Source of the DNA: Gammaproteobacteria bacterium | GTDB lineage: Bacteria; Pseudomonadota; Gammaproteobacteria; Steroidobacterales; Steroidobacteraceae | Length of the DNA: 38,995 nucleotides | Reading direction: 5' to 3' | Assembly: GCA_027307325.1 (NCBI GenBank) | Contig: DAHUXE010000140.1 | Location: 1 to 38,995 of the forward strand | Shown here: positions 15,741 through 33,641 of the stretch, piece by piece | Layout: the number at the start of each line of letters is the position of its first letter | Numbering within the stretch: position 1 is the first letter of the stretch | Position numbers and translations under genes: made by a program | The notes under the pieces: model-generated | Database searches by the model: none | What the model was told of the DNA's origin: nothing | What the model saw: the letters and a program-made list of their open reading frames with translations, nothing else

Positions 15741-17338
15741 CAGAAGTCCGTGTCGCGCGCTTCGAGGAGCGTCGGGCCCGGGGCCGCGAGCGCGGCGCGC
15801 ACCCCCTGAATCAGGGCGTCGGGTCCCTGCACCCTGACTCCGCGTGCCCCGCAGGCGGCGGCCAGGCCAACGAAGTCCGGGTTGCGACCCGCCACCCCGA
15901 TCGGCTCGATCCCGGCGGCGACCATGTCGTCGCGGATCTGCGCGAGCGCCTGGTTGTTCCACACGACGACCGGCAGGGGCAATTGCAGCTCGACCGCCGT
16001 CAGGAGCTCCTGCAGCGTGAACTGCACGCCGAAATCGCCGGCGAGCGCGACTACCGGTCTCTGCGGCTGTGCGATCTTTGCCCCGATCGCCGCCGGCAGC
16101 GCGAAGCCCAGGGTGCCGTAACCTGCAGGATGAAACCAACTGCCGGGCCGATCGGCTGCGAACGCATAGTTGCCCGTGTAGGCGATCTGAGTCATGTCGC
16201 TGAACACGACTCCCTCGGGCGGCACGGCGGTCCGCAACGCCCGCAGCGCGGCGAGCGCGGGGCTCCAGTGCGCGGCGATCTGCGCTTCGATCGCGAGCCG
16301 CTTAGCCTGCGCATCGCCTGCCACGCTGCGCCAGCCGCGGCGTGCGTGCACCGCGGCGGTGAGCTGCTCGAGCGCCGCCCGGGAGTCGCAGTGGATCGCG
16401 ACCTCCTGCGCTGCTCCGTCGGCGAGCTGCGCCGCGTCGATGTCCACCCGGATGAGGCGGCCGGGAAAGGTGAGCCGGATCGCGGTGTAGACGTCGGTCT
16501 CGGCGAGTTCGGTGCCCACGGCGAGCACCACGTCCGCGGCGGCGATGAGCTCCCGGGTGGCGCGATAGGGGAGGCTGGCGCCGAGATTCGCGGGGTGGCT
16601 CTCCGGGAGGACGCCCTTGCCCGCGGTGGTCGTGACGAGGTAGCCGTCGAGCGCCTCGGCGAGTCGTGCGAGCGCCGCGCCCGCGTGCCGCGCGCCGCCG
16701 CCCGCGACGATCAGCGGCCGCTGCGCGCCCTCGAGCAGCGCGCCCGCCCGCCCGATCGCAGAGGCGTCCGCTTGCGGGACGGGCCCCGCAGGCGCGCAGC
16801 GCTCGGGCTCGAGTGCGGTCTTCTCCGCCAGCAGGTCGAGGGGAATGCCCACATAGGCGGGGCGCGGCCGACCGCCGCTTAAGTATGCAAGTGCGGCGGC
16901 GAGGTGCGCACGCACTTCGCCGGCGGAGCTGGCGTGCAGCGCCAGCCCGGCGACACCCGCCGCCGTGGCGCGCTGGTCGGCGAGCTCGTGCAACACACCC
17001 CAGCGGCGGCCGAGCGAGGCGCGCACCGGGGTGCTGGCGATGACGAGCATCGGCACCGAGTCCGAAGCGGCCTGGGCGATGGCCGTGAGTGCGTTGGTGA
17101 GGCCGGGGCCGGAGATGACGAATGCGGCGGCAGCCCGGCCGCTCGCCCGGGCAAAGCCGTCGGCAGCGAAGGCGGCGTTCTGCTCGTGGCGGGCGAGCAC
17201 GTGGCGCACCCGCCGGGAGTCGAGCCCGCGGTACAGCTCGATGTTGTGTACGCCGGGGATGCCGAACGCGGTATCGATGCCGTTGGCCGCCAGCATCTCG
17301 ATGACGTAGCGTCCGACTGTCCTTGAGGCTGCGCTCAT
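15740..17338 (-). CDS. aruI: Thiamine-diphosphate enzyme, probable 5-guanidino-2-oxopentanoate decarboxylase (AruI-like)
   Basis: A ThDP-dependent enzyme of 532 residues with the three usual domains. The PYR domain carries the catalytic Glu in ARHEQNAAFAADGFARASG. A central DHS-like domain contains IVAGGGARHAG. The PP domain has the GD...NN cofactor motif (ALAGDFGVQFTLQEL, then VVVWNN). The opening FGIPGVHNIELYRGL closely matches Pseudomonas AruI and differs from typical acetolactate synthases. AruI decarboxylates 2-ketoarginine to 4-guanidinobutyraldehyde. An AruH-like transaminase, which makes that substrate, is divergent 40 bases away. The start is ATG at 17338. EamA follows with overlapping stop and start. 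A different 2-oxoacid substrate is possible. Confidence 0.65.
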   Translation of the reverse strand: MSAASRTVGRYVIEMLAANGIDTAFGIPGVHNIELYRGLDSRRVRHVLARHEQNAAFAADGFARASGRAAAAFVISGPGLTNALTAIAQAASDSVPMLVIASTPVRASLGRRWGVLHELADQRATAAGVAGLALHASSAGEVRAHLAAALAYLSGGRPRPAYVGIPLDLLAEKTALEPERCAPAGPVPQADASAIGRAGALLEGAQRPLIVAGGGARHAGAALARLAEALDGYLVTTTAGKGVLPESHPANLGASLPYRATRELIAAADVVLAVGTELAETDVYTAIRLTFPGRLIRVDIDAAQLADGAAQEVAIHCDSRAALEQLTAAVHARRGWRSVAGDAQAKRLAIEAQIAAHWSPALAALRALRTAVPPEGVVFSDMTQIAYTGNYAFAADRPGSWFHPAGYGTLGFALPAAIGAKIAQPQRPVVALAGDFGVQFTLQELLTAVELQLPLPVVVWNNQALAQIRDDMVAAGIEPIGVAGRNPDFVGLAAACGARGVRVQGPDALIQGVRAALAAPGPTLLEARDTDF

Positions 17339-17378
17339 GCGCTTGAAATGTTAGCACCGGCCACGCAGAGTTAGCGGT

Positions 17379-18563
17379 GTGAAATTCTCATCCCTCACGA
17401 AGCGGATCTCCGGCACCGGGGCCGACGCCTGGCTTACGCACTACGAGGCGGTCGCGGCGCGCACCCGGGGCGAGGACGTCATCGTGCTGAGCGTCGGTGA
17501 CCCCGACATCGACACCCCGGCCCCGGTGCTCGAGCGCGCCATCGAGCAGCTGCGCCGCGGCGACACGCACTACGTCGCGGCGGCCGGGCGGCTCGAGCTG
17601 CGGCAGGCGAGCGCCCGCGCGCACGCGGCCCGCACGGGCCAGGCGGTCGGAGCCGAGAACGTCGTCTATCTCGCGGGGGCGCAGAACGCCCTGTTCGTCG
17701 CGTCGTTGTGCCTCCTGGGTCCCGGGGACGAGGTCGTGACCTTCGAGCCCATGTACCCGACCTATCCGGCGACGCTGGAAGTCGGGGGCGCGCGGATGGT
17801 GTGTGCGCCCACGGACGCGGGACTGCGCCCGGACCTGGCGGCGCTCGCGGCGCTCGTGACGAGCCGCACGCGCGCAATCCTCTGGGCGAGTCCCAACAAT
17901 CCGAGCGGCTTCGTCTTCAACGAGGCGGAGCTTGCGGTCATCGGCGAGCTGGCCCGGCGCCACGATCTGTGGCTGATTGCGGACGAGGTCTACGCAGGTC
18001 TCGCTCCGGGGGGCAGGGTGCCGGGGCTCGCCGCGCGCCTCCCGGAGCAGGTGGTGACGCTCGGGAGTCTCTCGAAGTCGCATGCCATGACCGGCTGGCG
18101 CGCCGGGTGGCTCGTCGGCCCGCGCGAGCTCGCGGTCAACGCCGAGCTGCTCGCCATGTGCATGCTGTTCGGCTTGCCGGGCTTCGTACAGGAGGCGGCG
18201 ATCACCGCGCTCGGCATCGCGCCCGAGGCCGAGCAGCGCACGCGCGAGTACTGCCGCATGCGCCAGCAGCGCTTCACGGCCGGCCTGCGCGGCATCGGCG
18301 GGCTGCGGCCCATCGAGCCCGAGGCCGGCATGTTCATGCTGATCGACGTGAGCGCCACCGGGCTCTCGGGCCGTGAGTTCGTACGCGCCCTGTACGGCTC
18401 GCAGAAGGTCTCGGTGATGGATGGGGCGGCGTTCGGGGCGGCGACCGCCCACTGCGTGCGGGTGTGCTTCGCGACCGACGAGTCGGGCATCGACTCGGCC
18501 TGCGAGCGGATCCGGCGCTTCTGCGCCACGGGGCTGTCAGGCACGTGCGCTGCCGCCCGCTGA
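17379..18563 (+). CDS. aruH: PLP aminotransferase, probable arginine:pyruvate transaminase (AruH-like)
   Basis: A class I/II aminotransferase of 394 residues. K233 in SLSKSHAMTGWRAGW is the PLP lysine. The motif SPNNPSG is at 171-177, the PLP-binding Asp is in ADEVYAG, and the substrate arginine is expected in the C-terminal domain. The N-terminal run VLSVGDPDIDTPAP, HYVAAAGRLELRQ and the AGAQNALF segment closely resemble Pseudomonas AruH. AruH converts L-arginine and pyruvate to 2-ketoarginine and alanine. The start is GTG at 17379. The AruI-like gene is divergent at 40 bases, and an APC permease overlaps its 3' end by 27 bases on the other strand. These neighbours favour arginine use over other amino acids. 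Confidence 0.68.
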   Translation: MKFSSLTKRISGTGADAWLTHYEAVAARTRGEDVIVLSVGDPDIDTPAPVLERAIEQLRRGDTHYVAAAGRLELRQASARAHAARTGQAVGAENVVYLAGAQNALFVASLCLLGPGDEVVTFEPMYPTYPATLEVGGARMVCAPTDAGLRPDLAALAALVTSRTRAILWASPNNPSGFVFNEAELAVIGELARRHDLWLIADEVYAGLAPGGRVPGLAARLPEQVVTLGSLSKSHAMTGWRAGWLVGPRELAVNAELLAMCMLFGLPGFVQEAAITALGIAPEAEQRTREYCRMRQQRFTAGLRGIGGLRPIEPEAGMFMLIDVSATGLSGREFVRALYGSQKVSVMDGAAFGAATAHCVRVCFATDESGIDSACERIRRFCATGLSGTCAAAR

Positions 18564-20526: not shown

Positions 20527-20540
20527 TTATTATATTATTA
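20527..20540 (+). promoter_or_regulatory. AT-rich element upstream of the carnitine dehydrogenase gene
   Basis: TTATTATATTATTA stands out in very GC-rich DNA. It contains the decamer TATATTATTA (20531-20540), which recurs on the opposite strand at 28219-28228 upstream of the BKACE operon. Here the decamer ends 57 bases before the dehydrogenase ATG; at the second site it ends 47 bases before the BKACE start. It may be a promoter or a binding site for a shared regulator, possibly the BetI-like repressor encoded at 22093. No clear -35 box was found. Confidence 0.45.
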
Positions 20541-20596
20541 CGACGACATTAAAAAGAGCCGCCGCCCGAGGGGGCGCGCGGCTGGTGCTAACGAAC

Positions 20597-22093
20597 ATGA
20601 GACAGGTCAGAACACTGGGACTGCTCGGCACGGGGGTGATCGGCGGCGGCTGGGCGGCGCGAGCGCTGCACTTCGGCATCGATGTGATCGCCGCGGACGT
20701 CAAGCCCGAGATGGAGGCCTGGATTCGCGGCGCCGTTGCCAACGCTGAAGGGGCCTTGTCGCGACTCACGTTCGCGCCGCTGCCGCCGAAGGGGAAGCTG
20801 AGCTTCACCACCGATCTCGCGGCTATGGCGCGCCAGGCTGACTTCATCCAGGAGAACATCCCCGAGCAGCTCGAGCTCAAGCAGCGCACCCTGGCCGCCG
20901 TCAGCCGTCACGCGCCGCGCGAGGTGGTGATCGCTTCCAGCACGTCGGGCCTCATGCCGAGCGATCTGCAGCGCGACATGGAGTGTCCCGAGCGCTTCCT
21001 GGTCGCACATCCCTTCAACCCGGTGTATCTGCTGCCGCTGGTGGAGCTGGTGGGCGGCAAGGCGACTTCTGACCTGGCCATCGAGGCGGCGTCGCGCTTC
21101 TACACCTACATCGGCATGCACGCGCTCAAGGTGCGGCGCGAGGTCCCGGGCCACCTCACCGACCGGCTGCAGGAGGCGCTGTGGCGCGAGATTCTTCACA
21201 TGGTGAACGACGGCGTCGCGAGCACCGGGGAGCTCGATGACTCGATCGTCTACGGACCTGGCCTGCGCTGGGCAGCCATGGGCACCAACCTCATCTACCA
21301 CCTCGCCGGCAGCGAGACCGGCATGCGCCACATGCTCAGGCAGTTCGGCCCCTGTCTCAAGTGGCCATGGACCCGCCTCGAGGCGCCCGAGCTCACCGAG
21401 CAGCTGATCGACCGCATGGTGGAGGGCACGCGCGCCCAGGCCGCGGGGCGCTCGATCCGCGAGCTCGAGCGGCTGCGCGACGATTACCTGGTGGCGATTC
21501 AGCAGGTGCTGCGCCAATTCAACATCGGGGCGGGGGCGACGCTGCGGGCGCTCGAGGAGCGGCTCTACGAGGCGGGGGCCGCGGCCGCGCGCGGCGCGCT
21601 GCTGGCGGCGGCCGCGGGGGATTCTCCGGGCGCGCTGCGGCTCGTGGAGACGGAGGTGCGCCCGGAGTGGGTCGACTACAACGGACACATGACCGACTCG
21701 CGCTACCTGCAGGTGTTCGGCGATGCGACCGATGCGTTGCTGCGCTACGCGGGTGTCGACGATGCCTACCGGCGCTCCGGACGGGCGCTTTATACGGTCG
21801 AGACCCACGTCACGCACCAGGCCGAGGCGCGTGCCCTCGAGCCGCTCTATGTCGCGAGCCGGGTGCTCGAGGTCGACGACAAGCGCGTACGGCTCTTTCA
21901 TGCGTTATGCCGCGGGCGCGACGCTGCGCAGGTCGCCACCGCCGAGCAATTGTACCTGCACGTCGACGCCACCGCTGGCAAGGCCGCGGCGATGGACGAG
22001 GGGGTGCGTGCGCGCCTCGCCGCGCTGCAGGCGGCGCAGGCGCGGCTGCCGCTGCCGCCCGAGGCCGGTCGCCTCGCCGGCAAGGCGCGCTGA
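20597..22093 (+). CDS. L-carnitine dehydrogenase fused to betainyl-CoA thioesterase
   Basis: A two-domain protein of 498 residues. The N-terminal 3-hydroxyacyl-CoA-dehydrogenase-type domain has the NAD fold GTGVIGGGWA (11-20), the segment QENIPEQLELKQ, SSTSGLMPSDLQ, and the catalytic His in AHPFNPVYLLPLVELVGG (H138). It continues with KWPWTRLE and AAGRSIRELERLRD, as in Agrobacterium/Sinorhizobium L-carnitine dehydrogenases. The C-terminal hotdog thioesterase has WVDYNGHM (D360 to H364). The same fusion occurs in those rhizobial enzymes. The first domain oxidises L-carnitine to 3-dehydrocarnitine; the second hydrolyses betainyl-CoA to glycine betaine. The ATG at 20597 begins at the NAD fold. 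An AT-rich element lies upstream, and a BetI-like repressor gene overlaps its stop. Confidence 0.9.
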   Translation: MRQVRTLGLLGTGVIGGGWAARALHFGIDVIAADVKPEMEAWIRGAVANAEGALSRLTFAPLPPKGKLSFTTDLAAMARQADFIQENIPEQLELKQRTLAAVSRHAPREVVIASSTSGLMPSDLQRDMECPERFLVAHPFNPVYLLPLVELVGGKATSDLAIEAASRFYTYIGMHALKVRREVPGHLTDRLQEALWREILHMVNDGVASTGELDDSIVYGPGLRWAAMGTNLIYHLAGSETGMRHMLRQFGPCLKWPWTRLEAPELTEQLIDRMVEGTRAQAAGRSIRELERLRDDYLVAIQQVLRQFNIGAGATLRALEERLYEAGAAAARGALLAAAAGDSPGALRLVETEVRPEWVDYNGHMTDSRYLQVFGDATDALLRYAGVDDAYRRSGRALYTVETHVTHQAEARALEPLYVASRVLEVDDKRVRLFHALCRGRDAAQVATAEQLYLHVDATAGKAAAMDEGVRARLAALQAAQARLPLPPEAGRLAGKAR

Positions 22094-22746
22094 TGCCGAA
22101 GATCGTCGATCACGAGCGGCGCCGCGACGAGATCGCTCTGGTCGCCTGCCGGGTCGTGGCGGAGCACGGCTTCGAACAGGCGACCATCGTGCGCATCGCG
22201 CGCCAGGCTGGCTACACCACCGGCATGGTGGCGCACTACTTCGACACCAAGCAGGAGATCGTCATCGCGGCGTTGCGCCTCATACTGCGCCGGATCGAGG
22301 AGCGGCTGACGGCGGCGGCCGGGGAGGGCGACCGGGAGCTGCTCGCTTTGCTCACCGAGGCGCTGCCGGTCGATGCCACACGCTTCACCGAATGCGCGTT
22401 CTGGGCGGCGTTCTGGGGTCAGGTATCGGCCGACGGGCGGTTGAAGCGCATCAACGCCTGGGTGCACCGCGAGTACCTGAAGCTCTTCGAACGCTGCCTG
22501 GCACGCGGCTGGCCCGAATGGCGGCAGTGGCCACCACAGGTCCGCGACCGGGTGCTGCGCTCGGTAGTCACCTTCATCAACGGCCTCACGGCGAGCGTAG
22601 TGGCGAGTCCGCGCGACTGGCCGGCGGCACGCCAGGTCGGGCAGCTGCGGCTGCAGCTCGAGATGCTGCACGCCTGGGCGGCGGGCGGGCGCGCCGCGGG
22701 CGCAGAGATGCGCGCAGCCAAGCGCGCGGCCGCCGCCCAGGCTTAA
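22093..22746 (+). CDS. BetI-like TetR-family transcriptional regulator
   Basis: A regulator of 217 residues. The helix-turn-helix is ATIVRIARQAGYTTGMVAHYF (about residues 27-47), typical of BetI-type TetR repressors. The ligand-binding domain includes ECAFWAAFWGQVSADGRL, also like BetI. BetI responds to choline in other bacteria. Here the context suggests carnitine or betaine as ligand, which is an inference. The ATG shares one base with the stop of the dehydrogenase gene (TGATG), indicating translational coupling. The acyl-CoA dehydrogenase gene follows after 9 bases, so the three form one operon. It could bind the AT-rich elements at 20527-20540 and 28205-28228. Confidence 0.85.
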   Translation: MPKIVDHERRRDEIALVACRVVAEHGFEQATIVRIARQAGYTTGMVAHYFDTKQEIVIAALRLILRRIEERLTAAAGEGDRELLALLTEALPVDATRFTECAFWAAFWGQVSADGRLKRINAWVHREYLKLFERCLARGWPEWRQWPPQVRDRVLRSVVTFINGLTASVVASPRDWPAARQVGQLRLQLEMLHAWAAGGRAAGAEMRAAKRAAAAQA

Positions 22747-22755
22747 GGAGTTACC

Positions 22756-23919
22756 GTGGATTTCAGCCTCACCGAAGAGCAACAGCTGATCGTCGATACG
22801 ACACGCAGGTTCGTGCGCGAGGAGCTGGTTCCGCACGAGAGCGAGGTAGAGCGCACCGGCGAGGTGCGCGGGGATCTGCTCGCAGAGCTCAGGACGAAGG
22901 CCATGGGCGCGGGTCTGTACGCCGCCAACATGCCGGTCGAGGTCGGCGGCGCGGGGCTCGACGGCGTCGCCTGGGTGCTCTACGAGAAGGAGCTCGGCCA
23001 CACCAGCTACGCGCTGCAGTACGGCTGCGTCGCGCGCCCGTCCAACATCCTGCTCGCCTGCGAGGGCGAGCAGCGCGAGCGCTATCTGCTGCCGGCGGTG
23101 CGCGGCGAACGCACCGAGTGTCTGGCGATGACCGAGCCGGAGGCGGGTTCGGACCTGCGCGGCATGAAGACCTGCGCGACGGCGCACGGCGGGGATTTCG
23201 TGATCGACGGGACCAAGCACTTCATCAGCCACGCCGATCACGCCGACTTCGTGATTCTGTTCGCGGCGAGCGGCGAGGAGGAAGGAGCACACGGGCGCAA
23301 GAAGCTGATCACCGCCTTCCTGGTCGACATGGGAACGCCCGGCTTCGAGGTGCGCCGCGGCTACCGGAACGTGTCACACCGCGGCTATACCAACAGCATC
23401 CTCGAGTTCACCGGCTGCCGCGTGCCGCGCGCGGCGGTGCTCGGCGAGCTGCACCGGGGCTTCGAGGTGGCGAACACCTGGCTCGGCGCCACGCGCCTGC
23501 AGGTCGCGGCCAACTGCCTGGGACGGGCCGAGCGCGCGCTGGCGCTCGCGACGCAGTGGGCGGCGCAGCGGCGCCAGTTCGGCCAGCAGATCGGCAAGTT
23601 CCAGGGCGTCGCCTTCAAGCTCGCCGACATGGCGGTCGAGCTGCGTGCCGCGGAGCTGCTGACGCTCGAGGCGGCCTGGAAGCTCGAGCGCAACAGCGCC
23701 ACCGACATGGACATGGCGATCGCGAAGCTCAAGGCGAGCGAGATGCTGGCGATGGTGGCGGATGAAGCGCTGCAGATCCACGGGGGCATGGGGCTCATGA
23801 CCGAGCTGCCGCTCGAGCGGATCTGGCGCGATGCGCGCATCGAGCGCATCTGGGACGGCACCAGCGAGGTGCAGCGGCATATCATCTCGCGCGCGCTGCT
23901 CAGGCCGCTCGGTGGCTAG
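22756..23919 (+). CDS. Acyl-CoA dehydrogenase, probable crotonobetainyl-CoA-forming (CaiA-like role)
   Basis: A FAD enzyme of 387 residues with the full acyl-CoA dehydrogenase layout. The N-terminal helices begin MDFSLTEEQQLIVDTTRRF, the middle strand holds LAMTEPEAGSDLRGMKT, and the C-terminal signature is QIHGGMGLMTELPLERIWRDARI, followed by EVQRHIISRALL. It starts at a GTG (22756), with AAGGAG seven bases upstream. Its neighbours are CaiD-like and carnitine genes, so oxidation of gamma-butyrobetainyl-CoA to crotonobetainyl-CoA is a plausible role. Another acyl-CoA substrate cannot be excluded. Its stop shares CTAG with the stop of the convergent CaiD gene (23916-23919). Confidence 0.78.
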   Translation: MDFSLTEEQQLIVDTTRRFVREELVPHESEVERTGEVRGDLLAELRTKAMGAGLYAANMPVEVGGAGLDGVAWVLYEKELGHTSYALQYGCVARPSNILLACEGEQRERYLLPAVRGERTECLAMTEPEAGSDLRGMKTCATAHGGDFVIDGTKHFISHADHADFVILFAASGEEEGAHGRKKLITAFLVDMGTPGFEVRRGYRNVSHRGYTNSILEFTGCRVPRAAVLGELHRGFEVANTWLGATRLQVAANCLGRAERALALATQWAAQRRQFGQQIGKFQGVAFKLADMAVELRAAELLTLEAAWKLERNSATDMDMAIAKLKASEMLAMVADEALQIHGGMGLMTELPLERIWRDARIERIWDGTSEVQRHIISRALLRPLGG

Positions 23920-24713
23920 CGGCCTTTCCACACGGGCTTGCGCTTCTCGGCGAAGGCGCGCGCGCCTTCCTTCAGGTCCTCGGAGCGGATCACCTTCTGC
24001 ACGGCGTTGAGCGCGTCGTGCACCTCGAAGGCCTGATGCTCGGGAATCATCTCGGTGTGGCGCAGCAGCTGTTTGATCGCCGGGAAGAGCAGCGGCGGCC
24101 CTGCGGCCAGTGACTGCGCGATCTCGCGCGCCCTGGCGAGTGCGGTGCCCTTCGGCACCACGTGGCTGGCGAGTCCCCAGTGCTTGGCTTCCGCGGCCTC
24201 CATCCAGCGGCCGGTCATGAGGAACTCCACCGCGACGTGGTACGGGACGCGGCGGCGCAGCTTGATCGTGCCGGCGTCCGCCAGCACGCCGACGTTGATC
24301 TCGGGCAGGGCGAATTTCGCGTGCTCCTCCATGACGATGATGTCGGTGCCGAGCACCAGCTCGAAGCCGCCGCCGCAGGCGATGCCGTTCACGGCCGAGA
24401 TGAGCGGCTTGTCCAGGTTGCGCGGGTAGTTGAGTCCGCCGAAGCCGGCGGCGCCCCAGTCGGTGTCGGATTCCTCCCCGGCCGCAGCGCCCTTCAGGTC
24501 CCAGCCGGCGCTGAAGAAGCGCTCGCCGGCGCCGGTGACGATGCAGATACGCAACGCCGGGTCGTCGCGGAACTCCTCGAACACCTTGTTGAGCCGGCGG
24601 CTCGCGGCGAGATCGATCGCGTTCGCCTTGGGGCGATCGAGCGTCACTTCGAGGACGGCGCCGGTGACGGCCGTGTGGACGCCGGCGGATGTGCTGTGGG
24701 TAAGGTCTGACAT
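23916..24713 (-). CDS. caiD: Enoyl-CoA hydratase/isomerase, carnitinyl-CoA dehydratase (CaiD-like)
   Basis: A crotonase-fold protein of 265 residues very similar to E. coli CaiD. It shares LEVTLDRPKANAID, GAGERFFSAGWDLK, GGGFEL and the C-terminus AFAEKRKPVWKGR (AFAEKRDPVWKGR in E. coli). The two catalytic glutamates of CaiD correspond to E118 (GGGFELV) and E138 (ALPEINVG). CaiD interconverts crotonobetainyl-CoA and L-carnitinyl-CoA. The start is ATG at 24713, 5 bases after the acyl-CoA ligase stop. It is the last gene of the minus-strand operon BKACE-thioesterase-ligase-CaiD. The other Cai genes (caiB, caiC, caiT) are not seen here. Confidence 0.85.
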   Translation of the reverse strand: MSDLTHSTSAGVHTAVTGAVLEVTLDRPKANAIDLAASRRLNKVFEEFRDDPALRICIVTGAGERFFSAGWDLKGAAAGEESDTDWGAAGFGGLNYPRNLDKPLISAVNGIACGGGFELVLGTDIIVMEEHAKFALPEINVGVLADAGTIKLRRRVPYHVAVEFLMTGRWMEAAEAKHWGLASHVVPKGTALARAREIAQSLAAGPPLLFPAIKQLLRHTEMIPEHQAFEVHDALNAVQKVIRSEDLKEGARAFAEKRKPVWKGR

Positions 24714-24718
24714 TGCTG

Positions 24719-26773
24719 TTACTCCGCGAGGCGGATCAGGGCGTCCACGGCCACCGCGCCGAGCGTCGCCGGACGCACGATGACGGGATTGATATCGAGC
24801 TCCGCCAGGGTCTCGAGATTGGCCTGCGCATAGCGGGCGCACGCGAGGGCGGTCTGCACCAGCGCCGGCACGTCGCCGGCAGGTCGGCCGCGGAAGCCCG
24901 CCAATAATCTTGACACACGCAGCCCAGCGAGCGCCGCCTCGATGGACGGGGCATCGAAGGGCGGCAGCAGAGTCACGCTGTCGCGCAGCAGCTCGGTGAG
25001 CACGCCGCCGGCGCCGAGAGTGAGCAGCTGGCCGAACTGCGGATCGACCGTGACGCCGACGAGTACCTCGGCCACGCCGTCGGTGACCATCTCCTCGATG
25101 AGCAGCGAATCGGAGAGCCGGGCGAGGCGCTGGGCGGCCTGCGCCGCCTCGGCGGCGCTGCGCACATTGAGCAGCACGCCGCCGGCTTCGGCCTTGTGCT
25201 CGAGGTCGGGGGTCGCGGCCTTGACGACGACCGGGAAGCCGAGCGCCTCCGCGGCACCGGCCGCATCGCGCGGGTGCACCACGGCGGAGCGCGGCACGCG
25301 TATGCCGTAGGCGGCGAGCGCCGCCTTGGCCTCGTGCTCACTGAGCGCGCGGGCGGGCTCCTTGAGGGCTCGCGGGCGCCGCAGCTCGACGCCCGCGCCG
25401 TGGCGCCAGGCCGCGCCGACGCCGCCGGCGAGGTCCAGTGCCTCGAGGCCTTCGCGCTGCCCCTGCAGCGGCACGACTCCCGCGGCCAGGCAGCGTTCGC
25501 GTGTTGCGGCGCCGAGCGACTCGGGGAGGGAGGAAATCACCGCTCCGCGGCTCGGTGCCCCGGGAATCGCCGCGATGAACTCTTCGATGCCGTTCAGGTA
25601 GGCGCTGGCGTCCGCTTCACCCTCGGGCGGACAGTCGATCATGAAGCCGACGGCGTCGAAGCCGGAGCGCTGCGCCACCGAGAACATGGCGCGCATGCGC
25701 GGGCGGTCGAACCAGACGTAGGTCTGGAAGTCGAACGGGTTCGCGACCGCCACCCGCTCGGAGAGAATCTCGCGCAGGCTCGCGGCGCTCGCCGCCGGCA
25801 GCGCAGCAAACTCGAGACCGAGCTGCCGCGAGCTGTCGGCGGTCATCGCCATGTCGCCGCCGGAGGCGCCCATGACGAGCACGCGCTTGCCGGGGAGCGG
25901 TCCGCCGCAATGAAATACCTTCAGCGTCTCGCACAGGGTGCCGAGCGAGTCGCAGCGCGCGATCCCGGCGCGGGCGCAGAAGGCGTCGAAGGCGGCGTCG
26001 GCGCCGGCGAGCGCGCCGGTGTGCGTGTGGGCGGTGCGTGCGGCCGCGGCGGTGCGCCCGGCCTTGACGAGCGCGATGGGCTTGTGGGCAGCGCGCGCAG
26101 CCGCGACGGCGTGCGCGAAGCGGCTCATATCCTTGACGCCCTCGAGGTACAGGCCGAAGGCGGTCACGCGCTCATCGGCGGCCAGCAGCTCGATCAGGTC
26201 CTCGGCCGCGAGGCGCGTCTGATTGCCGACCGTGAGGAGGCAGCCGATCGGCAGCGAGCGGCGGTTGAAGAGCAGATTGAGCGAGATGGTGCCGCTCTGG
26301 CAGATCAGCGCCACGCCGCGCTCGCGGCGCGCGCCCACCACCTGATCCGGCCACAGCGCCACCCCATCGAAGAAGTTGATGAAGCCGTAGCAGTTCGGGC
26401 CGAAGAAGGGCAGGTCCGGCGCGCTCGCGAGCAGCTCGTCCGTGAGGCGCTGCCCGTCCGCCGTGCCGCTCTCGGAGAAGCCGGCGGCAAAGCACACGAA
26501 GCCGCCCGCGCCGCGGGCGGCGAGCGCCGCGGCGATCGCCGGCACCTCGCGATTGGGCGCGGCGACGAACGCCGCATCCGGCGCGCCCGGTAGCTCGGCG
26601 ACCGAGCGGAAGTAGCGTTGCCCGGGGGTGGAGGGGCGCGACGGATGCACGCGCCAGAGCTCGCCCGAGTAGCCGACCCTGCTGCTGGCGGCGGCCACCG
26701 CGTCCGCCCACTCGCCGCCGACCAGCGCGACGCTGCGCGGGGCCAGCAGCCGCTGCATGGCACGGGGGTTCAT
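24719..26773 (-). CDS. ADP-forming acyl-CoA ligase (acetyl-CoA synthetase/ATP-grasp type)
   Basis: A protein of 684 residues with the layout of NDP-forming acyl-CoA synthetases. An N-terminal CoA-binding domain (LLAPRSVALVGG to FFGPNCYGFIN) is followed by a ligase-CoA region carrying the phosphohistidine motif (AHTHTGALAGADAAF). A C-terminal ATP-grasp domain runs from about residue 470 (EHEAKAALAAYGIRVPRS, then FPVVVKAATPDLEHKAEAGG, and LAELDINPVIV near the end). It makes a CoA thioester from a carboxylate, ATP and CoA. In this operon it could activate gamma-butyrobetaine, crotonobetaine or carnitine in place of CaiC. Its ATG overlaps the stop of the thioesterase gene by 4 bases. CaiD follows 5 bases after its stop. 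Confidence 0.82.
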   Translation of the reverse strand: MNPRAMQRLLAPRSVALVGGEWADAVAAASSRVGYSGELWRVHPSRPSTPGQRYFRSVAELPGAPDAAFVAAPNREVPAIAAALAARGAGGFVCFAAGFSESGTADGQRLTDELLASAPDLPFFGPNCYGFINFFDGVALWPDQVVGARRERGVALICQSGTISLNLLFNRRSLPIGCLLTVGNQTRLAAEDLIELLAADERVTAFGLYLEGVKDMSRFAHAVAAARAAHKPIALVKAGRTAAAARTAHTHTGALAGADAAFDAFCARAGIARCDSLGTLCETLKVFHCGGPLPGKRVLVMGASGGDMAMTADSSRQLGLEFAALPAASAASLREILSERVAVANPFDFQTYVWFDRPRMRAMFSVAQRSGFDAVGFMIDCPPEGEADASAYLNGIEEFIAAIPGAPSRGAVISSLPESLGAATRERCLAAGVVPLQGQREGLEALDLAGGVGAAWRHGAGVELRRPRALKEPARALSEHEAKAALAAYGIRVPRSAVVHPRDAAGAAEALGFPVVVKAATPDLEHKAEAGGVLLNVRSAAEAAQAAQRLARLSDSLLIEEMVTDGVAEVLVGVTVDPQFGQLLTLGAGGVLTELLRDSVTLLPPFDAPSIEAALAGLRVSRLLAGFRGRPAGDVPALVQTALACARYAQANLETLAELDINPVIVRPATLGAVAVDALIRLAE

Positions 26774-27252
26774 TGGCGCGCGCCGCCCGCGAGGCTGAGG
26801 GCGCGCGATGCCGGACCGAAGCCGGCGGCGGGAGCTGCCGCGGCGAGCGCGGCAATCGCCGCAGCGACCTCGGGCGGAAAGGGCGCGGAGCCCGCAGCAT
26901 CGCCCTGACGCACGTGCAGCAGCATGAACTCGACGGTCGCGGCCACGGGACCTGCGGGGAGGCGGCGGAGCGTGAAGCCCGCGTGCAGCCGCTTGACATC
27001 GCTGCCGAGGATCGTCACCTCGACCGCGCGGCGGTCGCTCTCCTTCACCTCGGAGAGGTAATGCACGTGCATTTCCAGGGTGTAGAGGGTGCAGCGCGTG
27101 CGCCTGCGGTAGGCGGCATCGATGCCGATACGGTCCATGAGCGCATCGCACGCGCTGCTCGCGATGAGCCCGTAGTACGCGTCGCGAACGTGGCCGTTAT
27201 AGTCGATCCACTCCGGCAGCATCGCCGTCTCGTAAATGGGAACTGCAGCCAC
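26770..27252 (-). CDS. Hotdog thioesterase, probable free betainyl-CoA thioesterase
   Basis: A thioesterase of 160 residues of the 4-hydroxybenzoyl-CoA type, with EWIDYNGHVRDAYYG (catalytic Asp17, YNGH to residue 21), then TLEMHVHYLSEV and GFTLRRL. It resembles the thioesterase domain fused to the carnitine dehydrogenase at 20597-22093 (EWVDYNGHMTDSRY). It lies directly after BKACE, whose product is expected to be betainyl-CoA, so hydrolysis to glycine betaine is the likely role. The GTG at 27252 is chosen because it keeps the VPIYETAMLPEW strand; an internal ATG at 27222 is possible. Its stop overlaps the ligase ATG by 4 bases. Confidence 0.78.
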   Translation of the reverse strand: MAAVPIYETAMLPEWIDYNGHVRDAYYGLIASSACDALMDRIGIDAAYRRRTRCTLYTLEMHVHYLSEVKESDRRAVEVTILGSDVKRLHAGFTLRRLPAGPVAATVEFMLLHVRQGDAAGSAPFPPEVAAAIAALAAAAPAAGFGPASRALSLAGGARQ

Positions 27253-27272
27253 GGCAGGAATTCGCGCCCGGC

Positions 27273-28172
27273 TCAGTGGAGCTCGAGACGGTCGCGGGCC
27301 TCGGCCGCGGTGACGACCCGCGCGCCCATGGCCTCGATGATCGTGCGGGCCTTCTCGACCAGCTGCGCGTTGCTCGCATAGACGCCGCGGCTCAGGTACA
27401 GGTTGTCCTCGAGTCCGACGCGCACGTTGCCGCCGAGCAGCACCGATTGCGCTACCCACGGCATCTGCATGCGGCTCACCGCGAACGAGGTCCAGACGCA
27501 CCGCGGCGGCAGGTAGTTCACCATGGCGAGCAGATGGGCGGTGTCCGCCGGCACTCCGTAGGGAATACCGGTGCACAGCTGGATGAGCGCCGGCGCGCCG
27601 ATGAGCTCTTCCTTGATCAGCTGCCTGACGAACCAGAGATTGCCGGTGTCGAACACCTCGAGCTCCGGCTTCACCCGCAGGTCGCGCAGGATGGCGGCGC
27701 CCTTGCGCAGGTAGCCGGGCGTCGAGACATAGGCACGATTGCCATCGCCGAAGTTGAGCGAGCCGCAGTCGAGCGTGGCGATGTCCGGGCGGTAGAGCCC
27801 CTCCTGGCACAGGTCGATCACGTGCCGCATGCGCTCTTCCTGACTGACGAAGTCCGTGCCCGCCGCCGGCGTGTCGGCGAGCCCATGGTCGCCGACGCAG
27901 ATATATCCGCCCATGCCGCAGGTGAGGTTCACGAGCACGTCGACCTTGCTTTCGCGGATGCGCCGCACGACCTCGCGATAGTGGCGCGTCGCCATGCTGA
28001 AGGCGCCGGTTTCGGGATCGCGCACGTGAATATGTACGATGGCGGCTCCGGCGCGGGCCGCCGCGACCGCGGATGCCGCGATCTGCTCGGGGGTGATCGG
28101 GCAGTGCGGACTCTTGGTAACCTTGGTGTCGTCGCCGGTGACGGCGCAGGTGATGATGACGTCGGAGTTCAT
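27273..28172 (-). CDS. BKACE-family beta-keto acid cleavage enzyme, probable 3-dehydrocarnitine cleavage enzyme
   Basis: A TIM-barrel metalloenzyme of 299 residues in the DUF849/BKACE family. The zinc-binding HIHVRD (H47, H49) is present, along with IITCAVTG at the N-terminus and QLCTGIPYGVPAD later. BKACE enzymes cleave a beta-keto acid with acetyl-CoA. The dehydrocarnitine type gives acetoacetate and betainyl-CoA. The substrate is inferred from its neighbours, a betainyl-CoA-type thioesterase 20 bases downstream and the carnitine dehydrogenase nearby. The start is ATG at 28172; the longer open frame upstream runs through an AT-rich promoter-like region. It is the first gene of a four-gene operon and is divergent from the aldehyde dehydrogenase. 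Confidence 0.86.
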   Translation of the reverse strand: MNSDVIITCAVTGDDTKVTKSPHCPITPEQIAASAVAAARAGAAIVHIHVRDPETGAFSMATRHYREVVRRIRESKVDVLVNLTCGMGGYICVGDHGLADTPAAGTDFVSQEERMRHVIDLCQEGLYRPDIATLDCGSLNFGDGNRAYVSTPGYLRKGAAILRDLRVKPELEVFDTGNLWFVRQLIKEELIGAPALIQLCTGIPYGVPADTAHLLAMVNYLPPRCVWTSFAVSRMQMPWVAQSVLLGGNVRVGLEDNLYLSRGVYASNAQLVEKARTIIEAMGARVVTAAEARDRLELH

Positions 28173-28279: not shown

Positions 28280-29704
28280 ATGCAGACTCAGTTGTTGATC
28301 GGCGGACGGCTCACAGGCGGCGAGGGGCCGCCGGAGACGGTGCTCGATGCGGCGAGCGGAGCGGCGATCGCCACGGTGGCGTCGGCGAGTGTCGAGCAGG
28401 TCGGGGCGGCGGTGGCCGCTGCCCAGGCGGCCTTCGACGGCTGGGCGGGCACGGCCCCCAGGGACCGTGCGGCGCTGCTGCTCAAGATCGCCGACGGGCT
28501 GGAGCGCGAGGCGGCCGCTTACGCGGGCCTCGAGTCGCGCAACACCGGCAAGCCCCTCGCGGCGATGCTCAACGACGAGATGCCGTCCATCGCGGACGTG
28601 TTCCGTTACTTCGCCGGCGCCTGCCGCATTCCGCAGGGGCTCGCGGCGGCGGAATCCCTGCCGGGCCATACCAGCATGATCCGCCGCGACCCGGTGGGTG
28701 TCGTGGGCTCGATCGCGCCATGGAACTATCCGCTGATGATGGCGGCGTGGAAGATCGCGCCGGCGATCGCCGCTGGCAATACGCTCGTTCTCAAGCCCTC
28801 CGAGCAGACGCCGCTCACGGCGCTCAAGCTCGGCGAGCAGCTCGCCGGGCTCCTGCCCCCCGGGGTCGTCAACATCGTGTGCGGGCGCGGCGAGCCGGTC
28901 GGCGCGGCGCTCGCGGCCCATCCGGGCGTGCGCATGGTGTCGCTCACCGGGGATGTCGGCACGGGCCAGAAGGTGCTGGCCGCGGCCGCCGCTAACCTCA
29001 AGCGCACCCACCTCGAGCTCGGTGGCAAGGCGCCGGTCATCGTCTTCGACGACGCCGATCTCGAGGCGGTCGTGGCCGGAGTACGCACCTTCGCCTTCTA
29101 CAACGCCGGCCAGGACTGCACCGCGGCCTGCCGCCTGTATGCGGGCGAGCGCATCTACGAGCGGCTGGTGGCGGATCTCAGCAGCGCGGCCCGCAGCATC
29201 CGGGTCGGTACGCAGCAGGAGGCGGGCGTCGAGATGGGCCCGCTGATCTCACAGCGGCAGCGCGAGCGCGTCGCGGGCATGGTGGCGCGCGCGGCGGCGT
29301 CGCCGCACATGGAGGTCACGACCGGCGGCAAGCAGCGTGCCGGCGGCGGCTTTTTCTACGAGCCGACGGTGATCGCCGGCGCCCGCCAGGGGGACGAGAT
29401 CGTGCAGCGCGAGGTGTTCGGGCCGGTCGTGTCGGTCACGCGCTTCGGCGACGACGCCGAAGCGCTCGCCTGGGCCAACGATTCCGAGTACGGGCTCGCC
29501 TCCTCGGTGTGGACCCGGGACATCTCGCGGGCGATGCGGGTCGCCGCGCGGCTGCAGTACGGGGCCACCTGGATCAACACGCATTTCGCCACGGTGAGCG
29601 AGATGCCGCACGGCGGCTTCAAGCGCTCGGGCTACGGCAAGGACCTGTCGGTGTACGCGCTCGAGGACTACACCGTGGTGCGCCACGTCATGGTGAAGCT
29701 CTGA
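28280..29704 (+). CDS. patD: PatD-type aldehyde dehydrogenase (gamma-aminobutyraldehyde or related amino-aldehyde)
   Basis: A dehydrogenase of 474 residues, the same length as E. coli PatD (YdcW), with strong agreement over the whole length: [30 protein letters not shown] and [19 protein letters not shown]. Catalytic residues are Glu246 (HLELGGK) and Cys280 ([11 protein letters not shown]). PatD oxidises 4-aminobutyraldehyde to GABA. The ATG at 28280 has AAGGAG six bases upstream, and it is preferred over a GTG at 28262. The location opposite the carnitine operon suggests that trimethylaminobutyraldehyde (giving gamma-butyrobetaine) or 4-guanidinobutyraldehyde (from AruI) could also be substrates. 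That is an inference. Confidence 0.82.
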
Positions 29705-29721
29705 TTTGAAGCTCGCATCGG

Positions 29722-29802
29722 ACATTGCGCTGCGCTGTCCTGCTGCGCGCAAGCCCTGGGCGCACATCCCTGTGCGCCCGCTCGGCGCGCTGCGCCTCGC
29801 CC
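29722..29802 (+). repeat. Hairpin repeat copy A
   Basis: An 81-base unit repeated at 29874-29954 with one mismatch (76 identical bases, then C/T, then GCCC). Inside is a hairpin GGGCGCACA-tccc-TGTGCGCCC (29758-29779). It lies directly after the aldehyde dehydrogenase stop. A related third copy with a different stem follows the binding-protein gene. Such repeated palindromes in intergenic DNA resemble REP/BIME elements. Confidence 0.8.
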
Positions 29803-29817
29803 TGGCACGATGCTCGC

Positions 29818-29872
29818 GGCGGCGCGCCAAAAGCGCGGTTTCGGCGCGCCGCCCGCCGCCGGCGGCGGCGGG
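29818..29872. repeat. Two palindromes between repeat copies A and B
   Basis: GGCGGCGCGCC (29818-29828) pairs with GGCGCGCCGCC (29843-29853), an 11-bp stem with a 14-base loop. It is immediately followed by CCCGCCGCCG (29852-29861) pairing with CGGCGGCGGG (29863-29872), separated by one base. They fill the interval between the two direct repeats. The whole block 29722-29954 is thus a chain of hairpins. Confidence 0.7.
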
Positions 29873-29873
29873 C

Positions 29874-29968
29874 ACATTGCGCTGCGCTGTCCTGCTGCGC
29901 GCAAGCCCTGGGCGCACATCCCTGTGCGCCCGCTCGGCGCGCTGCGCCTTGCCCATGTGCCTGGGCAG
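29874..29968 (+). repeat. Hairpin repeat copy B, running into the binding-protein start
   Basis: The second copy of the 81-base unit (29874-29954), with hairpin GGGCGCACA/TGTGCGCCC at 29910-29931. The following TGTGCCTGGGCAG (29956-29968) also follows copy C at 31105-31117, so the element extends to at least 29968. The proposed binding-protein ATG at 29955 lies inside the element. Confidence 0.75.
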
Positions 29969-31055
29969 CGGATTGCTGATTTCCGTGCTGGTCCTCGCCG
30001 CCTGCGGCGGCGGCGCGCACCGCGGCGGCGAGCAGCCCGTGCTGCACGTCTACAACTGGGCGGATTACATCGGCACGGACACCGTCGCCGAGTTCGAGCG
30101 CACGAGCGGCATCCGCGTCGACTATGACACCTACGACTCCGACGAGACCCTCGAAGCCAAGATGATGGCGGGCGACTCGGGTTACGACATAGTCAGCACC
30201 TCGACCGACTATTTCGCGCGCCAGATCAAGGCCGGCATTTACCAGCGCCTCGACCGCAGCAAGCTCCCAAACTGGGGCAACCTCGACCCCCACGCACTGG
30301 CGATCGAGGCCGCAGCCGACCCCGGCAACGCTCACGCGATGCCCTACCTGCACGCGGTCAACGGCTTCGCCTATAACGTGGACCAGATCCGGGCGCGCAT
30401 GCCGGACGCCCCGGTCGACAGCCTCGACCTGATCTTCAAGCCGGCGATTCTCGCCCGCTTCGCCGACTGCGGCGTGTCGTTTCTCGACTCCGCCGAGGAC
30501 GTGCTGCAGCTCGCGCTCAATTACCTGCACCTCGACCCGAACACGCAGAGCGCCGCCGACTATGCCCAGGCGGAGAAGCTGCTGCTCGCGGTGCGCCCGT
30601 ACGTCAGGGCCTTCGACTCCTCCGAGTACATGAACGGGCTCATCAACGGCGAGTTCTGCATCTCCATGTCGTGGTCGGCGGATTACTCGACCGCGCGCGC
30701 CCGCGCCCGGGCGGCGGGGGTCGACGTGCACCTGGCGTTCACCGTGCCGAAGGAGGGCGCCAACGGCACTTACGACGCGCTGCTGATCCCAGCCGATGCG
30801 CCGCACCCGCAGAACGCGCACAAGTTCCTCAACTTCATCCTCGAGCCGAAGGTGATCGCGGCCATCACCAACGAGATTCACTACGGCAACGACAACCGCG
30901 CGGCCGATGCTTACGTCGATCCGCAGATCCTCCATGACCCGACGATCTACCCGACGCCCGCAGTCGAGGCGCGGCTCTATCACTCCCACGAGGTCGCGCC
31001 GCCGCTCGAGCGGCTGCGCACGCGCACCTGGACCCGCCTCAAGACCGCGCTTTAA
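29955..31055 (+). CDS. PotF/PotD-like polyamine-type substrate-binding lipoprotein
   Basis: A binding protein of 366 residues (E. coli PotF has 370). It begins with a short lipoprotein signal peptide, LLISVLVLAAC, with the acylated Cys at 17. The mature part has LHVYNWADYIGTDTVAEFE, YDTYDSDETLEAKMMAG, SGYDIVSTSTDYFARQIKAG and the ligand-pocket region EFCISMSWSADYSTA. It binds a polyamine or similar amine for an ABC importer. The start is uncertain: no good ribosome-binding site is visible, the signal peptide lacks N-terminal positive charge, and the ATG lies in repeat copy B. The open frame extends upstream to 29706 through the repeats. Permease genes of the same type lie convergently at 31130-32858. 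Confidence 0.78.
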   Translation: MCLGSGLLISVLVLAACGGGAHRGGEQPVLHVYNWADYIGTDTVAEFERTSGIRVDYDTYDSDETLEAKMMAGDSGYDIVSTSTDYFARQIKAGIYQRLDRSKLPNWGNLDPHALAIEAAADPGNAHAMPYLHAVNGFAYNVDQIRARMPDAPVDSLDLIFKPAILARFADCGVSFLDSAEDVLQLALNYLHLDPNTQSAADYAQAEKLLLAVRPYVRAFDSSEYMNGLINGEFCISMSWSADYSTARARARAAGVDVHLAFTVPKEGANGTYDALLIPADAPHPQNAHKFLNFILEPKVIAAITNEIHYGNDNRAADAYVDPQILHDPTIYPTPAVEARLYHSHEVAPPLERLRTRTWTRLKTAL

Positions 31056-31058
31056 TTA

Positions 31059-31117
31059 TGGGCGGCCATCCTGGCCGCCCGCTCGGTCCTTCGGCCCTCG
31101 CCCCTGTGCCTGGGCAG
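31059..31117 (+). repeat. Hairpin repeat copy C with compensatory stem changes
   Basis: A hairpin GGGCGGCC-ATCCT-GGCCGCCC (31060-31080) occupies the same place as the GGGCGCACA/TGTGCGCCC stem of copies A and B. The flanks GCTCGG and TGTGCCTGGGCAG (31105-31117) match copy A or B. Stem bases differ on both sides so that pairing is kept. It starts 4 bases after the binding-protein stop and may act as a terminator between the two convergent units. Confidence 0.65.
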
Positions 31118-31129
31118 GGCGCGCAGCGC

Positions 31130-31960
31130 TCACTGCTCTGCGAGCTGCATCTCGAGCCGCCGGCGGCGCTCGGCGCGTTTCATGAGCCATCCGGCGGCGA
31201 GGATGACGGCCCCCACTGCGCAGACGATGAGGCTCGCGAGCGCGTTGATATCCGGGCTCACGCCGAGCTTCACTTTCGAGTAGATCACCATCGGCAGCGT
31301 GCTGGCTCCCGGGCCGGAGACGAAGCTCGAGATCACGAGGTCATCGAGGGAGAGCGTGAAGCACAGCAGCCAGCTGGACACGATCGCGGGGGCGATGATC
31401 GGCAGCGTGATCTCGAGAAAGGCGCGCGCGGGACCTGCGCCCAAGTCCATGGCGGCTTCCTCGAGCGAGCGGTCGGCGCTTGCGAGGCGCGCCTGAACGG
31501 TGATCGTCACATAGGCGGTGCAGAAGGTGACGTGCGCGAGGACGATGGTGGTGAAGCCGCGGTGCGGCCAGGAGATCAGCTGCATCATCGAGACGAACAG
31601 CAGCAGCTGCGTGATCCCGGTGATGATCTCCGGCATGACGAGCGGCGCATTCACCATCCCGGTGAGCAGGAGCCTCCCGGGAAATCTGGCGAACCGCACC
31701 AGCGCGACGGCTGCCAGCGTGCCGAGGACCACCGCGCCGCTGGAGGCGCTCACCGCCACTTCCAGCGACAGCAGCGCGGCTTCGAGCAGCTGGCGGTTGT
31801 GCCACAGCGTCCCGTACCAGGCGGTGGAGAAGCCACCCCAGACGTTGACCAGCGGCGAGGCGTTGAACGAGTAGCCGATCAGCACCAGGATCGGGATGTA
31901 GAGGATCGCGATGCCGAGGCACAGCACCGAGAGCAGGAACAGGGACGAGCGGCGTTCCAT
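31130..31960 (-). CDS. PotI-like polyamine ABC transporter permease
   Basis: An inner-membrane permease of 276 residues with six hydrophobic segments. It begins with a membrane helix (SLFLLSVLCLGIAILYIPILV) and the PotC/PotI segment LIGYSFNAS. The conserved ATPase-contact loop is EEAAMDLGAGPARAFLEITLP, followed by FTLSLDDLVISSFVSGPG. It matches the PotI/PotC family. The ATG at 31960 follows the PotH stop after 7 bases. It ends convergently 74 bases from the binding-protein gene. No ATPase gene follows. Confidence 0.87.
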   Translation of the reverse strand: MERRSSLFLLSVLCLGIAILYIPILVLIGYSFNASPLVNVWGGFSTAWYGTLWHNRQLLEAALLSLEVAVSASSGAVVLGTLAAVALVRFARFPGRLLLTGMVNAPLVMPEIITGITQLLLFVSMMQLISWPHRGFTTIVLAHVTFCTAYVTITVQARLASADRSLEEAAMDLGAGPARAFLEITLPIIAPAIVSSWLLCFTLSLDDLVISSFVSGPGASTLPMVIYSKVKLGVSPDINALASLIVCAVGAVILAAGWLMKRAERRRRLEMQLAEQ

Positions 31961-31967
31961 GCCTTCT

Positions 31968-33619: not shown

Positions 33620-33641
33620 GCGGCGCAGCCCGCTGCGCGAC

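What the first reader, a model, noticed from the sequence alone, without database searches (positions are those of the whole stretch)
20597..28172. Two facing operons assemble a hybrid gamma-butyrobetaine/carnitine to glycine betaine pathway
Plus strand: carnitine dehydrogenase-thioesterase fusion, BetI-like repressor, acyl-CoA dehydrogenase. Minus strand: BKACE, thioesterase, ADP-forming acyl-CoA ligase, CaiD-like dehydratase. Known family functions connect into one chain from a CoA-activated betaine through crotonobetainyl-CoA, carnitinyl-CoA, carnitine and 3-dehydrocarnitine to betainyl-CoA and betaine. This joins the aerobic carnitine dehydrogenase/BKACE route with CaiD-type chemistry known from E. 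coli crotonobetaine metabolism. No caiB, caiC or caiT is visible. The convergent stops share CTAG at 23916-23919.
Basis: partly seen in the sequence, partly recalled or inferred. Interest (0 to 1): 0.78.

Follow-up and report, generated by a model that had tools for sequence, protein, structure and literature searches.

The report
Butyrobetaine-to-betaine gene regulon
A bacterium carries, in two facing gene groups with one shared control element, what looks like the known enzyme set that turns gamma-butyrobetaine and carnitine into glycine betaine; the pathway is already described in rhizobia, but the control element, a spare thioesterase and a diverged cleavage enzyme make this a variant.

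Summary
The seven genes are real and correctly named. The chain is not a new hybrid: the same set (BKACE, CDH-thioesterase, acyl-CoA dehydrogenase, ADP-forming ligase, CaiD-like hydratase) stands together in Rhizobium etli and Sinorhizobium meliloti, at 40-64% identity to R. etli. S. meliloti BcoAB is used in print as the gamma-butyrobetaine:CoA ligase.

New here: a 21-bp element lies before both operons and nowhere else in the 2.98-Mb assembly at up to one mismatch. In relatives it precedes 62 of 74 BKACE and 29 of 36 CDH starts, with no other site in 1.2 Mb of loci. Where the cluster has split, both halves keep it. So the two operons, probably with an aldehyde dehydrogenase at 28280, look like one regulon; the BetI-like TetR inside it is the likely regulator (untested).

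The BKACE sits in its own clade with a changed active-site loop, and the CDH scores just under its equivalog cut-off, so the substrate may differ. Rival: a guanidino or longer cationic acid made from an amino acid. Verdict: new variant of a known pathway.

The parts
20531..20551 (+). 21-bp AT-rich element (TATATTATTRYNNNNAYAWTA) 45 nt before the CDH-TE start codon; putative operator or promoter
   Evidence: conserved in relatives
20597..22093 (+). carnitine 3-dehydrogenase domain fused to a 4HBT_2 thioesterase domain (CDH-TE); thioesterase motif DYNGH intact
   Evidence: Pfam; NF005716 575.1 bits against cut-off 592; alignment
22093..22746 (+). BetI-like TetR regulator, candidate binder of the element
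   Evidence: PF13977 and PF00440; BetI models 68.8 and 66.5 bits, below their cut-offs; binding untested
22756..23919 (+). acyl-CoA dehydrogenase, probable GBB-CoA dehydrogenase
   Evidence: 64% identical to the R. etli and 62% to the S. meliloti cluster gene
23916..24713 (-). CaiD-like crotonobetainyl-CoA hydratase
   Evidence: 53% identical to the R. etli and S. meliloti cluster genes
24719..26770 (-). ADP-forming acyl-CoA ligase, one chain (BcoAB-like)
   Evidence: 40% identical to the R. etli cluster gene; the S. meliloti region reads in two frames
26770..27273 (-). stand-alone 4HBT_2 thioesterase (TE2)
   Evidence: only NCBIfam match is the CDH-TE model, through its thioesterase part
27273..28172 (-). 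BKACE, probable dehydrocarnitine cleavage enzyme of a separate clade
   Evidence: PF05853 299.5 bits; tree; loop
28208..28228 (-). second copy of the element, 35 nt before the BKACE start and 51 nt before the aldehyde dehydrogenase start; overlaps an inverted repeat
28280..29704 (+). aminobutyraldehyde-type aldehyde dehydrogenase, divergent from BKACE; possible supplier of GBB from the aldehyde
   Evidence: NF010000 761.7 bits, cut-off 615; beside the ligase in 3 of 5 split clusters
29706..32858 (.). Pot-type ABC transporter genes: PotF-like binding protein (+), PotI- and PotH-like permeases (-); possible uptake; association only
   Evidence: next to the ligase half in 4 of 5 split clusters
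32939..34811 (-). second BetI-like TetR (32939-33664) and a Rieske oxygenase (33642-34811) related to quaternary-amine demethylases; association only
15740..18563 (.). AruI-like ThDP decarboxylase (15740-17338, -) and class I aminotransferase (17379-18563, +); possible amino-acid feed-in; association only
   Evidence: NF005712 572.9 bits, cut-off 500; near the cluster in 6 of 20 genomes

Best explanation
The two facing operons are one regulon for breaking down gamma-butyrobetaine (GBB) and carnitine to glycine betaine. Upper half: the ADP-forming ligase makes GBB-CoA, the acyl-CoA dehydrogenase makes crotonobetainyl-CoA, the CaiD-like hydratase makes carnitinyl-CoA, and a thioesterase frees carnitine. 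Lower half: the CDH domain oxidises carnitine to 3-dehydrocarnitine, BKACE with acetyl-CoA gives betainyl-CoA and acetoacetate, and a thioesterase frees betaine. The BetI-like TetR at 22093-22746 probably binds the 21-bp element before both operons (and before the aldehyde dehydrogenase, which may make GBB) and lets go in the presence of a pathway compound. Shown: families, conserved grouping, the element and its placement. Inferred: every reaction, the substrate, the direction of flow, and TetR as the binder.
For: Families. Same gene set in R. etli and S. meliloti, 40-64% identity to R. etli; S. meliloti BcoAB ligates GBB to CoA (passages). All seven genes together in 29 of 80 relatives; a Nocardioidaceae locus, L082, also has ACAD, ligase, hydratase, BKACE, CDH and thioesterase. 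Element before both operons: only two sites in the 2,984,702-base assembly at up to one mismatch (both defined the pattern); before 62 of 74 BKACE and 29 of 36 CDH-TE starts, 0 other sites in 1,201,487 bases (window included as one of 75 sources). In 5 split clusters the GBB-to-carnitinyl-CoA genes stand apart from the carnitine-to-betaine genes and both parts keep the element. Quaternary-amine neighbours: GbcA/CntA-related Rieske; FAD-GcvT enzyme between the halves in one relative; MTTB-family gene beside CDH-TE in L012 and L030.
Against: The BKACE is outside the S. meliloti type, with a changed loop. CDH-TE scores 575.1 against a cut-off of 592, while S. meliloti scores 946.2. Hydratase, ligase and BKACE reach no equivalog cut-off; nor does the S. 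meliloti BKACE. The aminotransferase and AruI-like gene nearby have no place in a GBB route. Five of 35 loci with both starts have the element before neither. The Pot binding protein is of the polyamine family, not a known carnitine or betaine binder, and no Pot ATPase was seen in the window.
Confidence: 0.68

Rival explanations
1. Same chemistry, another substrate: the chain handles an amino-acid-derived acid whose cation lies further out, such as 4-guanidinobutyrate from arginine or 5-trimethylaminovalerate from trimethyllysine. The aminotransferase, AruI-like decarboxylase and aldehyde dehydrogenase make the acid; the ligase-to-BKACE chain shortens it by two carbons.
For: BKACE clade (100/100, 76 of 91 rows) has TGDD[TSA]K and GGY instead of TG[AS]GDT and GGD. 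Kce Glu14 holds the C5 amine (PMC10470551, passage); it appears to align with Asp15 here and Gly in S. meliloti (residue numbering inferred). AruI-like gene over its cut-off in the window and near the cluster in 6 of 20 genomes; in ten loci it and an aminotransferase are divergent from BKACE, across the element in G002 and G006. A dimethylargininase-like gene follows the hydratase in 7 loci (209.5 bits, cut-off 450).
Against: 4 of 20 genomes have no AruI-like match at E <= 1e-120, two of them with the full seven genes (L009, L021). The dimethylargininase-like gene has only a 35% match elsewhere in this genome. Orthology to the GBB cluster and the quaternary-amine neighbours favour GBB.
Confidence: 0.2
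2. The genes make carnitine and betaine as osmoprotectants from an internal GBB supply rather than break them down for food.
For: An aldehyde dehydrogenase shares the control region and sits beside the ligase in 3 of 5 split clusters, as expected if GBB is made in the cell; recalled: Bazire et al. report GBB synthesis in S. meliloti.
Against: FAD-GcvT enzymes and a Rieske oxygenase that could take betaine further are in the genome or beside the genes. Transport genes and TonB receptors stand nearby in window or relatives.
Confidence: 0.08
3. The 21-bp element is merely the promoter of each operon, and the operons are not under one regulator.
For: It is AT-rich in a 69% G+C window and lies 35-51 nt before start codons, where a promoter could be.
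Against: A general promoter would recur: no further site in the genome at up to one mismatch, and 31 of 37 distinct places in 14 relatives lie by these genes. Genes that moved keep it. One copy overlaps an inverted repeat.
Confidence: 0.12

Closest known systems
S. meliloti / R. etli GBB-carnitine-betaine cluster (BKACE, CDH-TE, acyl-CoA dehydrogenase, BcoAB-type ligase, CaiD)
   Same: Same five enzyme families together, 40-64% identical to R. etli; CDH fused to thioesterase; ADP-forming ligase.
   Different: There one co-directional row with a divergent GlxA-family regulator; here two convergent operons with a BetI-like TetR inside, a second thioesterase, and a BKACE of another clade. The ligase is one chain here and in R. 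etli, two frames in the S. meliloti record.
Pseudomonas/Burkholderia-type carnitine operon (caiX-cdhCAB; CdhR)
   Same: BKACE, L-carnitine dehydrogenase and thioesterase side by side in Caballeronia; CdhR control in P. aeruginosa (PMC5806209, passages).
   Different: No ligase, acyl-CoA dehydrogenase or hydratase in the Caballeronia stretch; AraC-family regulator; CDH not fused.
E. coli cai operon (CaiTABCDE)
   Same: The hydratase is closest to the CaiD model in NCBIfam, below cut-off.
   Different: No CaiT, CaiB or CaiC among 30 window proteins; no BCCT in the genome; recalled: cai is anaerobic and reduces carnitine to GBB.
Arginine transaminase pathway (AruH-AruI-KauB, recalled)
   Same: Aminotransferase, AruI-like decarboxylase and aldehyde dehydrogenase families occur in the window.
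   Different: Not one operon here; the aldehyde dehydrogenase goes with the betaine genes; the link is not obligatory.

Membership tests
GBB-to-glycine-betaine cluster of the S. meliloti type | BKACE, CDH-TE, acyl-CoA dehydrogenase, ADP-forming ligase and CaiD-like hydratase together | tested here: met
GBB-to-glycine-betaine cluster of the S. meliloti type | CDH-TE over the NCBIfam carnitine 3-dehydrogenase cut-off | tested here: not met
   575.1 against 592; S. meliloti 946.2, R. etli 941.9
GBB-to-glycine-betaine cluster of the S. meliloti type | BKACE with the loop of the S. meliloti enzyme and inside its clade | tested here: not met
   some rows of the tree have long branches and the tool warns of L075 with L077/L078
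GBB-to-glycine-betaine cluster of the S. meliloti type | enzymes act on GBB, carnitine and their CoA esters | not testable with these tools
   needs assays
BKACE family (PF05853) | profile match and metal and catalytic residues (HxH, R-x-G-x-EDN; roles recalled) | tested here: met
   299.5 bits against 24.8; residues seen
BetI (choline-binding repressor) | equivalog score | tested here: not met
   68.8 against 201.3 and 66.5 against 118; BetI-type C-terminal domain PF13977 is present
E. coli cai operon | CaiT, CaiB, CaiC present | tested here: not met
   none among 30 window proteins; no BCCT in the genome; CaiB and CaiC not sought genome-wide
Arginine transaminase pathway | 2-ketoarginine decarboxylase-type enzyme | tested here: met
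   NF005712 572.9 bits, cut-off 500; model is a subfamily, so the substrate is not fixed by it
Arginine transaminase pathway | these genes act in the regulon of the window | tested here: inconclusive
   no element before them in the window; near the cluster in 6 of 20 genomes, no match in 4 of 20

The most novel reading that the evidence does not exclude
This lineage's module is a carnitine-like chain for a different cationic acid made from an amino acid by aminotransferase, AruI-like decarboxylase and aldehyde dehydrogenase: 4-guanidinobutyrate from arginine or methylarginine, or 5-trimethylaminovalerate from trimethyllysine. It would be cleaved by a BKACE clade of new specificity and run by a new TetR regulon.
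Probability: 0.18. Interest if true: 0.78.

Novelty: new variant of a known kind. Interest (0 to 1): 0.42.

Why it matters
It puts the aerobic GBB/carnitine-to-betaine route in a large group of mostly uncultured gammaproteobacteria (MAG titles), under a control element unlike the AraC/GlxA control of the carnitine operons seen here. The 21-bp element gives a direct handle on the whole regulon. The diverged BKACE clade poses a clear and cheap substrate question; if the answer is not carnitine, it would be a new breakdown route for methylated or guanidino compounds.

Tried and rejected
Hybrid-pathway novelty: rejected after the R. etli and S. meliloti clusters were read.

Relatives that seemed to lack CDH or the ligase (two locus groups): not real losses. 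CDH-TE is in 15 of 15 genomes searched (in one, cut over two contigs), and a ligase at 66-69% identity in 5 of 6, the sixth having only a 115-residue piece.

Second BKACE of the genome (L002) as the real partner: it stands between an aminotransferase and an oxidoreductase with no CDH in the 3.9-kb stretch; left aside.

AruI-like gene as a fixed partner: rejected, no match in 4 of 20 genomes at E <= 1e-120.

Structure prediction was not used: its stated output has no coordinates, so the pocket could not be read. The Kce structure paper and the Bazire paper are not held. Paper searches for a guanidinobutyryl-CoA/carnitine link, for TetR control of carnitine or GBB use, for trimethyllysine breakdown in bacteria and for Steroidobacteraceae with carnitine returned listings with nothing that I took to bear on the point (listings only, no paper from them read); this covers only that open library.

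Error of mine: the EamA query was out of frame, so its rows are not used; the right frame is. In one search the row b_L073 of the CDH alignment was a wrong-strand translation and is not used.
Full report
What is there. Landmarks can be seen in the alignments: HIH and LEDN in BKACE, an intact DYNGH motif in the fused thioesterase and in TE2 (translation); their roles are recalled. The minus-strand operon starts at 28172.

Is it known? As a pathway, yes. R. etli p42c has BKACE, carnitine 3-dehydrogenase, acyl-CoA dehydrogenase, an acetate-CoA ligase family protein and carnitinyl-CoA dehydratase in a row. An S. meliloti record has the same order, the ligase being unannotated there (the record is titled pSymB, yet is 3.7 Mb long). 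Window proteins are 40% (ligase), 49% (CDH-TE), 50% (BKACE), 53% (hydratase) and 64% (dehydrogenase) identical to those of R. etli. The S. meliloti ligase region reads in two frames, as the name BcoAB suggests; PMC8364193 used S. meliloti BcoAB to make GBB-CoA (passages). PMC12482172 says that the S. meliloti CDH acts on carnitine and on betainyl-CoA (passage). The original paper, Bazire et al. 2019, is not held; that it describes five enzymes for seven steps is my recollection of its abstract.

Relatives. A scan of genome contigs found 482 relatives of the BKACE and kept the best 80, most of them MAGs titled Gammaproteobacteria, Proteobacteria or Steroidobacteraceae. 29 of the 80 hold all seven genes, and 34 hold all but the TetR; many others are cut by contig ends. 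In ten loci an aminotransferase and an AruI-like decarboxylase stand divergent to BKACE. In six others (L012, L020, L022, L024, L027, L030) ligase, hydratase and dehydrogenase are not in the fetched stretch. Whole-genome searches found the missing parts. For five of these six genomes I fetched the ligase region: in five of five it holds dehydrogenase, hydratase and ligase together, with the aldehyde dehydrogenase beside the ligase in three and the Pot genes close by in four. In one of the five (L123) the two halves are only some 4 kb apart. So the cluster comes apart between GBB-to-carnitinyl-CoA and carnitine-to-betaine, as expected if carnitine is a meeting point. In those six loci the fused thioesterase has lost the DYNGH motif (6 of 6), while TE2 keeps it (6 of 6); over all fused thioesterases read, 29 of 37 keep YNxH. 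TE2 has probably taken over there.

The shared element. Both operons are preceded by an AT-rich stretch in a 69% G+C window. A 21-letter pattern drawn from the two sites has three matches in the window at up to two mismatches, one being the overlapping reverse of another, against none in 100 shuffles. The two exact matches are there by construction. What informs: no further site in the 2,984,702-base assembly at up to one mismatch; presence within 250 nt before 62 of 74 BKACE starts and 29 of 36 CDH-TE starts, both in 27 of the 35 loci with both starts, and no other site in 1,201,487 bases (up to two mismatches, the window being one of 75 sources); and in 14 whole genomes 50 matches at 37 distinct places, of which by position I place 31 at these genes and six elsewhere, while the reversed control pattern matched in three of the 14. 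In the five split clusters the ligase has the element (four at two mismatches, one at three) and so does the dehydrogenase (two at two, three at three); apart from a CDH-TE copy in L123, nothing else matches at up to three mismatches in those stretches. Against it: in L036, L042, L051, L055 and L058 neither start has a match. The simplest regulator is the BetI-like TetR between CDH-TE and the dehydrogenase, but it scores below the BetI cut-offs and its binding is untested; a second TetR of the same type lies at 32939-33664.

Where it departs from the known type. The BKACE falls in a clade of 76 of 91 rows with 100/100 support and a long stem (0.86). Of 86 loci read, 75 share DD after TG and 75 share GGY, in place of [AS]G and GGD. 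L075 and L077/L078, titled as alphaproteobacteria, share it, though the tree tool warns that their long branches may meet falsely. Kce binds the C5 amine of its substrate through Glu14 (PMC10470551, passage); that residue appears to align with Asp15 here and with Gly in S. meliloti (numbering inferred). CDH-TE is just under its equivalog cut-off. These facts would allow a cation held further from the keto group.

Which substrate? For GBB and carnitine: orthology, gene set, the break at carnitine, and quaternary-amine neighbours: a Rieske oxygenase related to glycine betaine and carnitine monooxygenases, FAD-GcvT enzymes in the genome and, in one relative, between the two halves (no dimethylglycine model reached its cut-off), MTTB and NCS1 genes beside CDH-TE in some relatives. 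For another acid: an AruI-like decarboxylase near the cluster in 6 of 20 genomes, by position, in two arrangements with an aminotransferase; a dimethylargininase-like gene after the hydratase in 7 loci; and the BKACE loop. Against the latter: no AruI-like match in 4 of 20 genomes, and no element before these two genes in the window. I hold GBB/carnitine at 0.68.

Verdict. A real and coherent regulon; the pathway is known; the two-operon arrangement, regulator type, shared element, second thioesterase and BKACE clade make it a new variant. The substrate is the part worth an experiment.

Noticed in passing
L063 14209-15015 and L065, L066, L068, L069, L071, L072: A dimethylargininase-like gene directly follows the hydratase in 7 loci, hinting at methylarginine or another guanidino compound in that sub-lineage.
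   Followed up: partly
window 13172-14764 and 36254-37855: Two phytoene-desaturase-like FAD oxidoreductases of unknown substrate; the second stays near the betaine genes in many relatives, in some with a GcvT-like gene.
   Followed up: partly
window 29706-32858: Pot-type transporter with binding protein and two permeases but no ATPase seen beside them; a PotG-like ATPase lies in the cluster region of several relatives.
   Followed up: partly
L002 (G000:C133:4820-5680): A second BKACE in the genome, with the S. meliloti-like SGDS/GGD loop, between a class III aminotransferase and an inositol-dehydrogenase-like gene (gene names by eye).
   Followed up: no
L077 and L078, about 5200-13050: A BKACE of the window's clade in alphaproteobacteria, behind a Pot-type ABC transporter and an SDR dehydrogenase, with no CDH match; its substrate is unknown.
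   Followed up: partly
window 34884-36254: A class III aminotransferase closest to the guanitoxin transaminase GntE model (445.1 bits, cut-off 525), kept beside the Rieske gene in many relatives.
   Followed up: no
window 11291-12169 and 12207-13178: Two similar-looking predicted proteins in a row, no Pfam match.
   Followed up: no
window 4897-5943: ACC deaminase by NCBIfam (612.9 bits, cut-off 392).
   Followed up: no
L086 (CP090106.1): S. meliloti record titled plasmid pSymB is 3.7 Mb long and carries the chromosomal-type carnitine cluster; possibly mislabelled.
   Followed up: no
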